DNA of 64,000 nt from Paramarasmius palmivorus. Lineage: Eukaryota > Basidiomycota > Agaricomycetes > Agaricales > Marasmiaceae. A model generated the notes under the pieces. It made no database searches. It worked only from the letters and a program-made list of their open reading frames with translations, and had not been told where the DNA came from. Below are positions 14,325 through 37,486 of this stretch, one piece after another. Position 1 is the first letter of the stretch, and every line of letters starts with the position of its first letter. The position numbers were made by a program, and so were the translations under genes. The stretch lies in the NCBI GenBank assembly GCA_037176845.1, contig JAYKXP010000168.1, positions 27,160-91,159 of the forward strand, in the 5' to 3' direction.

Positions 14325-15092
14325 TTATTGAACATAAATTAATATATTTATAAATATAATTGTAGATGAAACAATAAAAATTAAGAAAAAATCTATTAAT
14401 GAATAATATAATTGAAATTTACGTCTCAACTGAATAAATCTACTTATTTTAGGATATTTTATTTCTAATTGAAGTCTATCAATTAATATATTTCCATAAA
14501 ATATAATAAATAATGATATTAAAGAAATTATTATAACAATACAACCTGTAACATTTACTATAGCAACACATTGATCAAATGTTAAAGAAGATAAAAATTC
14601 TGATATATCAGATAAATATTTTGAAGTGTTACCACTACCTTTATTTATTTCTTCTAATATCTTACTTAATTCATTACCGAATTTTTGTCCAGAATTAGCT
14701 AATATATCGCCTTTTTCCTTAAATTCTTTAACAAGTTTAACTAATTCTTCAGAAGTTAATTTTTCTAAAGCATCAGGGTCATAAAAACGATTACCTAGTT
14801 CTTTATAAACATCCAAATCGCCTTTGAATTCCTCATTAGCTTTATTAATCATATCCATATGTTTCTGATTTATATTAGTCTTAATTATTACTTCGTATTG
14901 GTCATCAATTTTACGTTGTCATAATTCCTGTCTTACAGAATGTTCTTGTATATTATTATTTAAATTATTTATTGTTTGTTCATGATTACTCATATTTTTT
15001 TTAGCCTTTACTCCATTAATAGTGTTGAATACACCCATTGTAAAAGTAGTTAAAGTCATTCCTTGAAAAAATCTTGTTAATTTATTATTCAT
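14325..15092 (-). CDS. Accessory membrane protein, 255 residues, coiled-coil plus KYP-loop module
   Basis: Not recognised as a named gene. With TGA as Trp the frame runs from ATG 15090-15092 (MNNKLTRFFQG) to TAA. The N-terminal helix (MTLTTFTMGVFNTIN) is followed by a long charged, probably coiled-coil middle (residues 35-160: NNIQEHSVRQELWQRKIDD, EFKEKGDILANSGQK). Then comes a helix pair (CIVIIISLISLFIIFYGN and FLIFIVSSTIIFINILI) flanking the basic loop KYPKISRFIQLRRKF. The loop ties it to the ORFs at 17680, 32469 and 33982. The start overlaps by eight bases the end of a scrambled nad2 remnant (15085-15537), mirroring the nad2/nad3 junction; its first residues MNN match nad3. I infer that nad3 was replaced by this ORF in a duplicated nad2-nad3 unit. 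Confidence 0.72.
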
Positions 15093-15537
15093 TATTAAAT
15101 AATTGTTGTGTTGTATTTAAGATTAAAGAAGGTATATAATATATAGTATAATAATCATCTATTCTAACTTGATTTGTACGAGAAAGTAGATAAAGATATA
15201 AAATATGTGAATGTGTATTAATATTGGATAATCCTTTATATAAAGATTGTAATTCTATACTTAAGATACTATTTAATAAAGTATATAAATATAAAATTTT
15301 ATGTAATAAAAAACATTCTAAATTTTGAGAACGTGTAGTAATATTGAATAATCCATTATATATCCCTATTCCTGAAAAACTATCTAAATTATAAATAATA
15401 TTATAACTTAATAGACCAGAAAATAGTAAAATTATAACTGATATTCTATGATAAAAACCCGTAGATAATTTACCATTTTTGTATAATAAAAATTTGAAAT
15501 ATGATAATAATTTTCTCATTCTTTTAATAATTATCAT
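15085..15537 (-). pseudogene. Internally deleted nad2 copy, still open (150 codons)
   Basis: Reads as a chimera of nad2 pieces in nad2 order: the N-terminal region (FYHRISVIILLFSGLLSYN, LDSFSGIGIYNGLFNITT), then YLYTLLNSIL, SIELQSLYK, and the C-terminal tail SLILNTTQQL. Each matches a segment of true nad2 (669-2444), with the intervening parts missing. The first 25 residues (MIIIKRMRKLLSYFKFLL) are not from nad2 but are shared with the ORF starting at 32221. The frame ends inside the start of the 255-residue ORF. It may survive as an upstream reading frame that couples translation, or simply be decay; both are inference. Confidence 0.75.
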
Positions 15538-15740
15538 CTTTAATAATAATATTAGGGCATATAGGTATTTAATGGTTTTTATAGTTTAGAAGATCGTAGA
15601 AAATTTTAAATTAAAAAACAAAAAATATAATTTTAAAAAGATAATTGAATTTCACAGAATTTAGTAAATTTTAGATGTTTTAATTATAATAAATACAGAA
15701 AATTAAGAGTTTTAGGAAGAATCTATATTTAATAAAATAA

Positions 15741-15747
15741 TGAGGGT
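15741..15747 (-). promoter_or_regulatory. Candidate 3'-end motif after accessory ORF
   Basis: Sense ACCCTCA about 60 bases past the TAG at 15808. Confidence 0.45.
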
Positions 15748-15807
15748 AAGAAACTACAATTTTAGTTAAATACCTATGAATATTTCCTATTTTAAAGAGG
15801 AAATTAA

Positions 15808-34800: not shown

Positions 34801-35071
34801 TTTTGAGAGGGTAATATTATTTTAAGTAAATAATGATTACTATAGATAACTATTCTTTTAATTATCATTCATTATCATCTTTAATAATATTAGGGGATAT
34901 AGATAGGGAAGAAGAGAGGTGGGAGGAGGTGTTTATGGTTTGTTGTAGTACAGAATTAGGGTTTTTATAATGTGTGTAATTGCTACTAGAGAGGGTATTT
35001 TATTTTATAGTTATGTATATGACTAATAAGAATGAGGGTGCGTATGAAAACATTTAAACTTTAATTAAATT
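34801..35071. repeat. Repeated intergenic module, copy 3
   Basis: Holds TAATATTAGGGGATATAG, GTTTATGGTTTGTTGTAGTA, CAGAAT, GTAATTGC, TATGTATATGACTAATAAG and the 3' motif, in the same order as at 32222-32468 and 33490-33690. Confidence 0.6.
35033..35039 (-). promoter_or_regulatory. Candidate 3'-end motif after accessory ORF
   Basis: Sense ACGCACCCTCAT about 35 bases past the TAA at 35072. Confidence 0.52.
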
Positions 35072-36157
35072 TTATGAAAATAAAAATCTTAGTCTATTTA
35101 AAGCTAGTAATGTCGTCAAAGAAAAAGATAATAATAAGGTTGTAATTAAAAAGATTCAAACACTATTACTTTTTTGTCACGTATTAACATATCTAAATAA
35201 TAATGTATTAATGAATCGACCTAACAAATATTTATTTAAAAATTTTATTTCTATAGATTTAGAATTAACTAACAGTTTACATAATAAAATAATAATTAAG
35301 ATTATTATAAGACAAATTTTAATACATTCTAATAACAAACTATTGTTAAGCATTTCTAGTATAAATAATTCATTAGAATCTAAAGGACATTTTATGAAAG
35401 AATCTAAATTTAATTTATAATCAGGCTCTGTTAAAGGTGAAGGTTTTGTTCAATCAACACTTACTTTTTCAACTTCCTTAGTAACTGATAAACCAGCTTT
35501 TCATTCTTGTTTATCTAATAAGAATTTTAAGCTCATAGGATTTTTATTACTTAAAGAATCTGGTTTTATTTCAAATTGAGAGGAATTAAAAGCCAATTTA
35601 AAAGCATTACTTTCTGATTCACTTTTTGTTTTAACCATTTCTTTAGCTTCAATTTGAGTTGGACCAGCAACTATAATTTCACCACTATTATTAACAGTAG
35701 GTGGTCAAAAATTAGATAATATTCTATATTGTAATGATAATCCTGCTCCACCTAAAGATATAATACCTCATTTAGGTAGAAATCCCATACTATGTTTAGA
35801 AATTAGCATAGCTGCAATACGTGCTCCAGCTATAAAAGTAAATGTTTGACTAAGGTTATCGGATAAAACCCTGATTAATTCTCCTTTAATTATAACGGTC
35901 TGATTATTAATTATAACATTGTAATCTGAAAATATTATATTATTGTGCATATATAAATTAACAAATATTAATGATGTAATAAGAATAGATAAATAAACAA
36001 AACATGATAAATTTATACTATTTAAAATATTATTGAATTTTACTTTGATATAACTACCAAAGAAATCTTTCAAAATTAATATGAAAACTACATAATGTAG
36101 TACTACGGATGATAAAATGATAAACAATTTAAAAAATAAAAAATAAAATAAAGTCAT
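35072..36157 (-). CDS. Accessory membrane protein, 361 residues
   Basis: Several TGA (Trp) codons interrupt the frame under the standard code; read as Trp it runs from ATG 36155-36157 to TAA 35072. Order: helix 1 (KLFIILSSVVLHYVVFILIL), a basic loop, helix 2 (CFVYLSILITSLIFVNLYM), a hydrophilic part, GARIAAMLISKHSMGFLPK, a Gly-rich helix (WGIISLGGAGLSLQYRIL), a long soluble middle (about residues 165-270), then two C-terminal helices (ICLIIILIIILLCKLLV and VWIFLITTLLLFSL) around KYLFGRFINTLLFRY. The same plan occurs in the ORF at 15808-16914. The leader is an atp6-leader copy. Function unknown. Confidence 0.72.
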
Positions 36158-36365
36158 TAAATTAATAATAATAATTGGTGTATCTATAATATAATTTTTG
36201 TTTCTTCAACACTTCACTTAAATTATTATAAAGTGTGAATGCTTAGACAACTCAGTTACTTATTTGAAGTTGAAGTTGCTAAGCGGCCTTAATTACAAGT
36301 TATACTTATAAAAAGGAAAGGTTATTTCATCTAAGAAATTTAAATTTAAAGTTTTAATTATTGAT
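36158..36365 (-). promoter_or_regulatory. Copy of the atp6 leader (2)
   Basis: Sense blocks TTTCTTAGATGAAATAACC, TTAAGGCCGCTTAGCAAC, GTCTAAGCATTCACAC and GAAACAAAAATTATATTATA match 5557-5960 and 33150-33425. It has no 8-base tandem repeat or 43-base repeat. Confidence 0.82.
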
Positions 36366-36403
36366 TTATTAATTGTGATTTTTTCCATTCTTTTAATATC
36401 TAA

Positions 36404-37486
36404 TTATTCATTATCAAATGGTGATGGAAGTGGAGATAAATCTTTATCTTCTAATTCTTTTAATCTTTCTCTACTAATTCGTAACAATATTTTTTTAGGT
36501 TCTGGAGAATCCGGTTTTATAAGTATAGATTCCGGAGAATTAGGTAATGAATCAGATGCATAGGATGAAGAAACATTAGGTTTTATTGTTATGGAAGAGC
36601 TAGTAGAAGTTGGAGAACTATTACTATTTAAATCTATTAAATCTGAAGCTGAACTAGTAGATGATGTGGGACTAGAATCAGGACTTTTAAAGAATTTTTT
36701 ATAATTTTCCTCATTTAAATTAGAAGAACTAGTAGAAGTAGGTGAACTATCAGTATTTACTCCTTTAGAAGTTTTTTCTGAAGATATATAAGATAAAATT
36801 GAATCTTTATAATAATAAAGTACAGCACCTATCACAACTATTCCAGCTGCAATTAAAATGTATTTACCATAATTATGTAAAGTATTATCTTTATTAGAAG
36901 TAGATGAAGTTTCAACTGAATCAGATTCAACTTTATTGTTAAATGAATAACTTTTTCTTAAACTTTGCTCTAAATTTTCTAGATCTGATTCACTCTCTTT
37001 CATTTCTAGATTATTAACTTTACTAAAATCTTTTTTGTTTGTTATAGAATCAATTCAATTAGATAGATTATCTAACAATGATTTAGTTCAGTTTAAAGCT
37101 CTGTTAATTATACTAACTTCTAAAAATGAATCGAATCATTGTTTAATATTAGTAAAAATATCTGATAAAGGATTTAAAAAAGTAGTTAATATTAATCCAC
37201 CTCCAATAACTCCACTTAAGTATCATAAAATTCTGAAAATCATTAAAATTGATTTAAATAAAGGTTTATTTATAGGTAATATAAAATTTTTTAAAGTAAT
37301 TAATTTAATTTTAAAATCTTTAAGGAAAGAAGTCATAGTAATTCTTACTTTATTATAAAAATATGGTAAGTAAATTTCAGGTTTATGAATTAATAGATGA
37401 ACAATTAAGAAAAATTGTGATAAAATTTTTTGTAAAACCTTTAGAGGTAGTAGTAAAATATTTGCGAAAAATAAAAAATATTTCAT
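36404..37486 (-). CDS. Accessory membrane protein, 360 residues, Ser-rich tail
   Basis: A frame joined across a TGA (Trp) at 37223. I use the first ATG (37484-37486, MKYFLFFANILLLPLKVLQK); a TTG eight codons earlier is possible. The N-terminal half has helices around LFFANILLLPL and SQFFLIVHLLIH, then a Gly-rich helix (WYLSGVIGGGLILTTFLNP). A charged linker leads to a clear membrane helix (YILIAAGIVVIGAVLYYY), followed by a long hydrophilic tail with repeated SSPTST blocks and ending LKELEDKDLSPLPSPF. Unlike its neighbours it lacks the C-terminal KYP-loop pair. The leader copies that of cox1. Function unknown. Confidence 0.68.

What the first reader, a model, noticed from the sequence alone, without database searches (positions are those of the whole stretch)
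14325..37486. A multi-copy family of mitochondrial accessory membrane proteins
Reading TGA as Trp fuses many short ORFs into about a dozen proteins of shared design: a Gly/Ala-rich helix (FTGGAS, GIGAGGT, SLGGAGLS, GALGASG, GVIGGG), often a Ser/Asp/Lys linker, and a C-terminal helix pair around a basic loop (KYPxxSKFIxxxxK). The ORFs at 17680, 32469 and 33982 are clear paralogs with 14325 more distant; those at 15808 and 35072 form a second, larger type. They fill about 14-19 and 28-38 kb, all on the minus strand. I know of no named gene of this kind; the shared design points to one function, perhaps a hetero-oligomeric membrane complex.
Basis: partly seen in the sequence, partly recalled or inferred. 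Interest (0 to 1): 0.9.

Follow-up and report, generated by a model that had tools for sequence, protein, structure and literature searches.

The report
Mitochondrial genes wearing copied respiratory leaders
The mitochondrial DNA of this mushroom carries about a dozen extra open reading frames whose products are predicted to be membrane proteins, and six of them begin behind copies of the start regions of the mitochondrion's own respiratory genes, which likely lets them be expressed; some of these predicted proteins have relatives in several other mushrooms.

Summary
The window is most of a ~79,012-bp mushroom mitogenome, likely Paramarasmius palmivorus (size match only). Those at 17680, 32469 and 33982 are paralogs; 14325 shares their C-terminal hairpin (profile comparison, E 2.6e-7). 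15808 and 35072 do not form one type: 15808 has 96 relatives in my search (Lentinula, Termitomyces, Ganoderma, Fuscoporia), 35072 two (one Moniliophthora). Other accessory ORFs were not searched singly. No known domain or fold was found in those scanned.

The new finding lies upstream. Six of 14 starts tested sit in register behind copies of core-gene 5' leaders: nad1 (17680), atp9 (33982), atp6 (32469, 35072), nad4L (28421), nad2-nad3 junction (14325). One of 1500 random positions scored as high, and no core-versus-core pair; similarity without register is common. Two more reading frames carry nad2 codons. Five of the 96 relatives of 15808 start with nad2, nad4, cox1 or cox3 sequence.

Best reading: modular accessory membrane proteins expressed through captured leaders. 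Expression, a complex and any benefit are untested. Heterobasidion ORFs behind partial core-gene 5' ends are already published, so this is a larger, start-exact variant of a known kind.

The parts
14325..15092 (-). U2: 255-aa predicted membrane protein, coiled-coil-like middle, C-terminal helix hairpin
   Evidence: 24 of 125 fetched proteins match at E<=1e-3, one of them 99% identical; AF2 model all-helical, pLDDT 74.1, pTM 0.45
15095..15139 (-). Copy of the nad2 3' end / nad3 leader directly before U2
   Evidence: 44 aligned nt, 89% identical; registered score 314, 1 of 1500 controls as high; both junctions read AATAATGAATAAT
15085..15537 (-). Internally deleted nad2 copy, still open, stop overlapping the U2 start
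   Evidence: nad2 residues 17-133 matched by tblastn, 53%, E 1e-24; C-terminal PSLILNTTQ seen by inspection
15808..16848 (-). U3: 346 aa from the ATG at 16848; family with DPVRWWPSGVPQ and DDLIGQ motifs
   Evidence: 96 relatives, one of them 99% identical; 44 positions at least 90% identical among 87 long rows, U3 included; AF2 pLDDT 75.5, pTM 0.40
17680..18159 (-). U4: 159-aa paralog of U9 and U10
   Evidence: BLASTP 4e-30 to U9
18151..18316 (-). Copy of the nad1 5' leader, ATG and first codons, upstream of U4
   Evidence: 166 aligned nt, 95% identical, start codons aligned exactly; registered score 1263; the only other match in the assembly is nad1 itself
19084..19410 (-). U5: 108-aa ORF, predicted two TM segments
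   Evidence: ORF and hydropathy only; no leader copy; relatives not searched
28421..28840 (-). U6: 139-aa ORF between a copied and the real nad4L leader
   Evidence: relatives not searched
28857..28924 (-). Copy of the nad4L leader before U6
   Evidence: 67 aligned nt, 93% identical, offset 1-5 nt; registered score 410
29238..29678 (-). U7: 146-aa ORF starting 62 nt after cox3
   Evidence: weak similarity to in-frame extensions of P0070 and P0128
31229..32221 (-). U8: ORF whose N-terminal part is nad2 sequence fused to a polytopic protein
   Evidence: nad2 residues 17-69 at 92% identity
32003..32161 (-). nad2-derived codons in U8
32469..33149 (-). U9: 226-aa paralog of U4 and U10
   Evidence: BLASTP 2e-35 to U10; 99% identical P0001 in ENA
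33030..33231 (-). atp6 start region copy at the U9 start
   Evidence: 206-column blastn match, 69% identical; ATGs aligned; registered score 438
33781..33879 (-). atp9 pseudogene after U10
   Evidence: 33 residues, 94% identical, frame broken
33982..34626 (-). U10: 214-aa paralog of U4 and U9, GTG start
34653..34795 (-). Copy of the atp9 leader before U10
   Evidence: 142 aligned nt, 93% identical; registered score 1010
35072..36157 (-). U11: 361 aa from the ATG at 36157
   Evidence: Moniliophthora perniciosa relative, 44% over 97%; P0128 starts at the same Met
36136..36214 (-). atp6 leader and start copy at the U11 start
   Evidence: 80-nt blastn match, 84% identical; ATGs aligned; registered score 438
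36404..37486 (-). U12: 360-aa ORF, Gly-containing helix and Ser-rich tail
   Evidence: ORF, codon score best in frame; no leader copy; relatives not searched
1..267 (-). Start of U1, 314 aa, continuing beyond the window (contig 26482-27426); begins 30 nt after nad3
688..732 (-). Donor: nad2 3' end / nad3 leader
2238..2396 (-). Donor: nad2 codons 17-69
5535..5614 (-). Donor: atp6 start and leader
20224..20373 (-). Donor: atp9 leader
28215..28286 (-). Donor: nad4L leader

Best explanation
These are accessory open reading frames of an Agaricomycete mitochondrial genome, predicted to encode inner-membrane proteins, and six of the fourteen starts tested lie behind start-registered copies of respiratory-gene leaders (nad1, atp9, atp6 twice, nad4L, nad3), which likely supply their expression signals. 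Mechanism: recombination copies the 5' leader of a core gene, in some cases with its ATG and a few codons, in front of an accessory reading frame (copy and register shown; the act of recombination inferred). The leader would then bring the donor gene's promoter, RNA processing and translation start (inferred). The nad2-nad3 case copies even the overlapping stop/start junction, as a shrunken nad2 whose stop overlaps the start of 14325 (shown), so coupled translation is probable (inferred). The proteins are modular: an exchangeable N-terminal part and, in one homologous group, a C-terminal two-helix hairpin with a basic loop (sequence shown, membrane topology predicted). They would be inserted into the inner membrane by the mitochondrion's own translation and insertion machinery (inferred). 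What they then do is not established; my guess is that they persist as mobile, perhaps plasmid-derived, cargo, of which the most conserved member, 15808, has been retained for a membrane function.
For: Registered leader test: accessory scores 1263, 1010, 438, 438, 410 and 314 against 14 core leaders; the other 8 of 14 starts scored 90-176. Of 1500 random positions 1 scored 250 or more (478, an extra atp9 start copy at 33900) and the next was 232; core-versus-core maximum was 135. Fisher p 1e-12, or 1e-10 counting donors once (the random positions overlap each other, so these are rough). Alignments show ATG on ATG for nad1 and for atp6 twice and, for nad1/17680, identity ending after the first codons. 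Other fungi: 5 of 96 relatives of 15808 begin with sequence from the N-terminal part of a core protein: nad2 in P0119 (Ganoderma) and P0057, nad4 in P0053 (Termitomyces), cox1 in P0075, cox3 in P0050. Conservation of 15808: 44 positions at least 90% identical in 87 long rows, while its first 60 residues average only 0.40, as expected if N-termini are replaced. Hairpin homology. Module swaps: P0128 joins the 35072 N-part to a different C-part; P0003 joins the first 41 residues of 17680 to a 32469-type tail. Three of the ORFs without a leader copy start 30, 62 and 76 nt after a core gene.
Against: No transcript, peptide or mutant was available. Similarity to core leaders without register is common in this genome: in the unregistered test 41 of 400 random positions scored 250 or more and 7 of these lay within 40 nt of register, 3 of them at 400 or more (of 171 positions the best scored 579). 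So the case rests on register, not on similarity alone. 15808, the best conserved ORF, has no leader copy (score 103), so leader capture is not needed for retention; 19084 and 36404 also have none. Captures of atp6 by 32469 and 35072, and of nad2 by 31229 and 15085, may each be one event plus duplication. I moved the start of 35072 to ATG 36157 after seeing the atp6 match, which favours it; P0128 supports that start. The 15808-to-14325 profile match (E 6e-5, probability 64%) is weak. P0003 may be an assembly chimera. Two AF2 models have low pTM (0.40, 0.45) and no fold match at E<=0.001.
Confidence: 0.62

Rival explanations
1. Plasmid debris: the ORFs are passengers of integrated linear mitochondrial plasmids, not selected, and the leader copies are by-products of frequent recombination in the intergenic regions.
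For: Agaricomycete ncORFs co-occur with plasmid genes (PMC4201751, passages). Core-gene fragments without ORF use exist here too: atp9 pseudogene, a cox3 piece at 46507, and unregistered leader matches at random positions. In Heterobasidion two of three shared ORFs have dN/dS near 1 (PMC10234125).
Against: No family-B DNA polymerase found in the assembly (free plasmids may be missing from it, and the search had no positive control); phage-type RNA polymerase only on C25, in exon-like pieces as in a nuclear gene; no long inverted repeats around the two clusters. 15808 is conserved at 44 positions in 87 rows. Leader copies align at start codons, 6 of 14 versus 1 of 1500.
Confidence: 0.2
2. One reading: a domesticated hetero-oligomeric membrane complex with one cellular function.
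For: In-frame extensions of 15808-type proteins match the 17680/32469 type (P0061 1.7e-15, P0083 1e-5) or the 14325 family (P0110: 9e-19 to its member P0025, 4e-11 to U2). Heterobasidion nc-ORF5/uORF8 is a candidate in a mitonuclear interaction (PMC10512249, passages).
Against: 35072, 36404, 28421 and 31229 show no sequence relation to the group. P0070's extension is marginal (5e-4 against a best of 5.4e-4 in 240 shuffles) and 8 of 12 extensions match nothing below 0.05. No complex was modelled.
Confidence: 0.13
3. Spurious open frames: AT-rich intergenic sequence kept open by chance.
For: Three ORFs (19084, 28421, 29238) are within chance length and 17680 barely above it.
Against: Eight of the 11 in-window ORFs exceed the longest of 200 random runs; codon score best of the sense frames in 13 of 13; relatives at E below 1e-10 for 14325, 15808, 35072 and the 17680 type.
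Confidence: 0.05

Closest known systems
Heterobasidion annosum s.l. intergenic uORFs behind partial core-gene 5' ends (PMC10234125; abstract, passages and sections 9, 12, 16 read)
   Same: 5' ends of partial nad2, cox3 and atp8 and of two uORFs lie upstream of cox2 and of intergenic ORFs; nearly all of 20 ORFs have predicted TM regions; the authors propose a role in expression and note partial nad2 before uORF9.
   Different: Here six starts from five core leaders, none of them in that list (though the nad3 leader is the nad2 3' end), are aligned to the start codon and tested against random positions; orthology to those uORFs was not tested.
Phlebia radiata ORF319 (PMC4019555; section 13 and passages read)
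   Same: Its 5' end matches that of nad6 in 36 of 37 nt.
   Different: A single case, set by the authors at the edge of an inverted duplication.
Agaricomycete ncORFs / uORFs (PMC4201751 and PMC8581569; passages read, and section 13 of the latter)
   Same: Intergenic, unknown function, mostly with TM regions, suspected plasmid origin; PMC8581569 already notes significant uORF similarities between Marasmius palmivorus and the two Moniliophthora species.
   Different: In H. irregulare said to lack similarity to each other, in Marasmiaceae mostly extremely variable; here paralogs and one family with 96 relatives are found, in an assembly without a plasmid DNA polymerase.
Plant cytoplasmic-male-sterility ORFs (recalled, no call)
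   Same: Chimeric mitochondrial ORFs with core-gene 5' parts and membrane proteins.
   Different: No phenotype known here; no homology tested.

Membership tests
Agaricomycete mitochondrial uORF/ncORF with a partial core-gene 5' end | Intergenic ORF without a known domain | tested here: met
   No Pfam match over cut-off for 10 ORFs, U2-U11; no NCBIfam match over cut-off for 9, U12 included; U1 and U13 not scanned
Agaricomycete mitochondrial uORF/ncORF with a partial core-gene 5' end | Predicted transmembrane segments | tested here: met
   Hydropathy gives TM-like segments in 13 of 13, U13 in its longest form; prediction only
Agaricomycete mitochondrial uORF/ncORF with a partial core-gene 5' end | Core-gene 5' sequence directly upstream | tested here: met
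   6 of 14 starts, plus nad2 codons in U8 and in the nad2 fragment; not met for U1, U3, U5, U7, U12, U13
Linear mitochondrial plasmid (invertron) | Family-B DNA polymerase gene | tested here: not met
   PF03175: 0 matches at E<=0.01 in the assembly
Linear mitochondrial plasmid (invertron) | Own phage-type RNA polymerase gene | tested here: not met
   PF00940 matches only on C25, not the mitochondrial contig
Linear mitochondrial plasmid (invertron) | Long terminal inverted repeats | tested here: not met
   Within 13.5-20.6 kb and 28.2-38.1 kb the longest inverted pairs are 33 and 36 nt, 79% and 75% complementary
Homing-endonuclease ORF | LAGLIDADG or GIY-YIG domain | tested here: not met
   None in 10 ORFs
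Cytoplasmic-male-sterility-like ORF | Chimeric with core mitochondrial gene sequence | tested here: met
   U8 with nad2; leaders
Cytoplasmic-male-sterility-like ORF | Effect on fertility or host phenotype | not testable with these tools
   No phenotype data

The most novel reading that the evidence does not exclude
Expression parasitism in mitochondria: a modular set of membrane-protein genes spreads and survives in mushroom mtDNA by taking the start regions of respiratory genes, so that its proteins are made whenever, and by the same gene-specific activators as, the respiratory chain, and so can compete with it. This would be a fungal counterpart of plant male-sterility genes and a source of mitonuclear conflict.
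Probability: 0.3. Interest if true: 0.85.

Novelty: new variant of a known kind. Interest (0 to 1): 0.6.

Why it matters
Intergenic mitochondrial ORFs of mushrooms are often set aside as non-conserved. Here one has 96 relatives, with named hits in Lentinula, Termitomyces, Ganoderma and Fuscoporia, another has one in Moniliophthora, and there is a concrete way such ORFs could be expressed: start-exact copies of respiratory leaders. If right, each donor and copy pair is a natural experiment on where mitochondrial promoters and translation signals lie, and gives testable candidates for mitonuclear interaction.

Tried and rejected
Pfam, NCBIfam and PHROGs scans gave only matches below cut-off or at chance level (PHROGs saw U3, U9 and seven relatives). 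PDB sequence search: one weak match for the 15808 family (E 0.35); 82 matches up to E 1, those shown mostly coiled coils and helix bundles, for the 14325 family (best 0.015). Foldseek on both models against PDB and on the 15808 model against viral models: nothing at E<=0.001. Scans of viral and prokaryote contigs for DNA context: no relatives, so neighbourhoods in other fungi could not be read. No copies of U9's type, U2 or U3 outside C168 in the assembly at E<=1. A first leader test with a lenient score was discarded because AT-rich alignments grew without limit; searches replaced it, and 55 (without register) had many control hits. atp8 as leader donor: scores 98-170 against 14 starts, unregistered. 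A single second type joining 15808 and 35072 was rejected.

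
Full report
What the window is. The window is bases 27160-91159 of a 91,159-bp contig (C168) of a 68-Mb, 393-contig assembly. The first 12.15 kb of the contig repeats its last 12.15 kb at 99.8%, which gives a unit of 79,012 bp with 26.57% GC. It carries fungal core genes and reads with table 4. Of 15 core protein genes located, 14 lie on the minus strand; atp8 is on the plus strand at 51012-51170. PMC8581569 (passages and section 13) reports 79,017 bp and 14 unidentified ORFs for Marasmius palmivorus, now Paramarasmius palmivorus. 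The match in size and ORF number is an inference to species, not a sequence comparison.

The accessory ORFs. I call them U1-U13: U2 14325, U3 15808, U4 17680, U5 19084, U6 28421, U7 29238, U8 31229, U9 32469, U10 33982, U11 35072, U12 36404; U1 straddles the window start and U13 lies outside, after cox2. In-frame codon scores are the best of three sense frames for all 13. Stop to stop, 8 of the 11 in-window ORFs exceed every one of 200 random 10-kb runs (maximum 165 codons); U5, U6 and U7 do not. No curated domain was found in U2-U11 or, by NCBIfam, in nine including U12.

Families. U4, U9 and U10 are paralogs. A search with U4, U9, U10 and U2 found 28 proteins at E<=0.01, of which P0004 is the window's own and P0001 and P0002 are 99% identical to U9 and U2. 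Of 125 fetched proteins 24 match U2 at E<=1e-3; many share RFFQGLTLTTF-like sequence at the N-terminus, where complete, and FLSSLTFEQTVAIVN...KYPKIARFIQLRRKFQ-like sequence at the hairpin. Profile comparison joins U4/U9/U10 to the U2 family over the hairpin (E 2.6e-7). U3 against the U2 family is weaker (E 6.4e-5, probability 64%), and U3 against U4/U9/U10 is not supported. Controls with 13 core mitochondrial proteins gave 0.04 or worse for all three profiles. U3 has 96 relatives, that is all but one (U1 itself) of 97 proteins listed at E<=1 from a capped candidate list. The named ones are Lentinula edodes 64%, Termitomyces 54%, Fuscoporia viticola 42% and Ganoderma calidophilum 39%. In 87 long rows 44 columns are at least 90% identical. 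U11 has two relatives besides itself, Moniliophthora perniciosa 'hypothetical protein 29' (44%) and P0128. U1 found only itself inside the mixed U3/U11/U1 query and was not searched alone. U5-U8, U12 and U13 were not searched.

Leader copies. Self-comparison of the contig showed that regions before several accessory ORFs match regions before core genes. Without regard to register such similarity is common: 41 of 400 random positions scored 250 or more against some core leader, 7 of them within 40 nt of register. I therefore tested register, with an AT-aware score in a band of 25 nt, from -200 to +60, for 14 starts (13 ORFs and the nad2 fragment) against 14 core leaders. U4/nad1 1263, U10/atp9 1010, U9/atp6 438, U11/atp6 438, U6/nad4L 410 and U2/nad3 314. 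The rest: U12 176, U5 146, nad2 fragment 146, U1 129, U7 116, U8 115, U3 103, U13 90. Of 1500 random positions the best was 478 at 33900, itself an extra atp9 start, and the next 232; the 99.5th percentile was 205. Core genes against each other reached 135. The alignments show nad1 and U4 at 115 of 119 upstream bases with ATG on ATG, and the block TGAAGAAACAAAAATTATATTATAGA before atp6, U9 and U11. For U11 I chose ATG 36157 after seeing the match; P0128 begins at that methionine. Of the eight low-scoring starts, two (U8 and the nad2 fragment) carry nad2 codons in frame, three (U1, U7, U13) start 30, 62 and 76 nt after nad3, cox3 and cox2, and three (U3, U5, U12) have neither.

Three local arrangements are telling. 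(1) The nad2 fragment before U2 keeps nad2 sequence from residue 17 on and, near its end, PSLILNTTQ; it stays open, and its stop overlaps the U2 start as the nad2 stop overlaps the nad3 start. (2) U10 has the atp9 leader before it and an atp9 pseudogene after it. (3) U6 lies between a copied and the real nad4L leader. These look like reading frames placed at the start of a duplicated core gene; that is inference.

Other fungi. Only proteins, not DNA, of relatives could be read. Of the 96 U3 relatives, five begin with sequence from the N-terminal part of a core protein at E below 1e-5: P0119 nad2, P0053 nad4, P0075 cox1, P0050 cox3, P0057 nad2. Composition correction was off in that call, and three other matches below 1e-5 (P0075 and P0118 to nad6, P0119 to an inner part of nad2) are not of this kind, so the weaker two (P0050, P0057) rest partly on inspection. 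In-frame extensions of U3 relatives match the U4/U9 type (P0061, P0083) and the U2 family (P0110); P0070 to U7 is at the shuffle limit. Of 12 extensions of 60 aa or more, the other eight had no match below 0.05.

Structure. AlphaFold2 gave all-helical models of U3 (pLDDT 75.5, pTM 0.40) and U2 (74.1, 0.45). Long C-terminal helices fit a membrane hairpin. No fold relative was found.

What is in print. Himmelstrand 2014 (PMC4201751, passages) describes ncORFs with TM regions and their co-occurrence with plasmid genes. In this assembly no plasmid DNA polymerase was found. Phlebia radiata ORF319 shares 36 of 37 nt with the nad6 5' end (PMC4019555). PMC8581569 says most Marasmiaceae uORFs vary extremely but that significant similarities occur between Moniliophthora and M. 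palmivorus, which fits U11. Himmelstrand 2023 on Heterobasidion (PMC10234125) reports partial nad2, cox3 and atp8 5' ends before cox2 and intergenic ORFs and proposes a role in expression; uORF8 has dN/dS 0.35, uORF9 0.90, uORF6 1.15. nc-ORF5 of Heterobasidion is transcribed and a candidate in a mitonuclear interaction (PMC10512249, passages). So the idea of a borrowed 5' end is published. In what I read from ten answered paper searches I did not see a start-registered test, the nad1, atp9, atp6, nad4L and nad2-nad3 donors, or the wide conservation of the U3 family; the library holds open papers only, I read passages of most of the papers I opened, and supplements could not be opened.

Verdict. 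Shown: ORFs, paralogy, relatives for four groups (U2, U3, U11, U4/U9/U10), leader copies in register. Inferred: expression through them, membrane insertion, module exchange as a process. Unknown: function.

Noticed in passing
33781-33879, minus strand: Broken atp9 copy after U10 with its own leader copy; the intact atp9 is at 19977-20198.
   Followed up: partly
46507-46658: Inverted fragments of cox3 (46507-46563) and a 90-bp exact inverted copy of a stretch in the cox1 region (46569-46658 versus 42461-42550), close to a tRNA-Met at 46714-46785.
   Followed up: no
5639-5694: Seven perfect copies of an 8-bp unit (TGCTTTGC) inside the atp6 leader; not seen in the aligned U9 and U11 copies of that leader.
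   Followed up: no
51012-51170, plus strand: atp8, the only one of 15 core protein genes found on the plus strand.
   Followed up: yes
57018-59666 and outside the window (contig 5177-7832): rps3 is open in the window but split between two frames in the redundant copy at the other contig end, probably an assembly error.
   Followed up: no
protein P0003 (no window place): A short ENA contig encodes the first 41 residues of U4 joined to a U9-type tail; a recombinant or an assembly chimera.
   Followed up: partly
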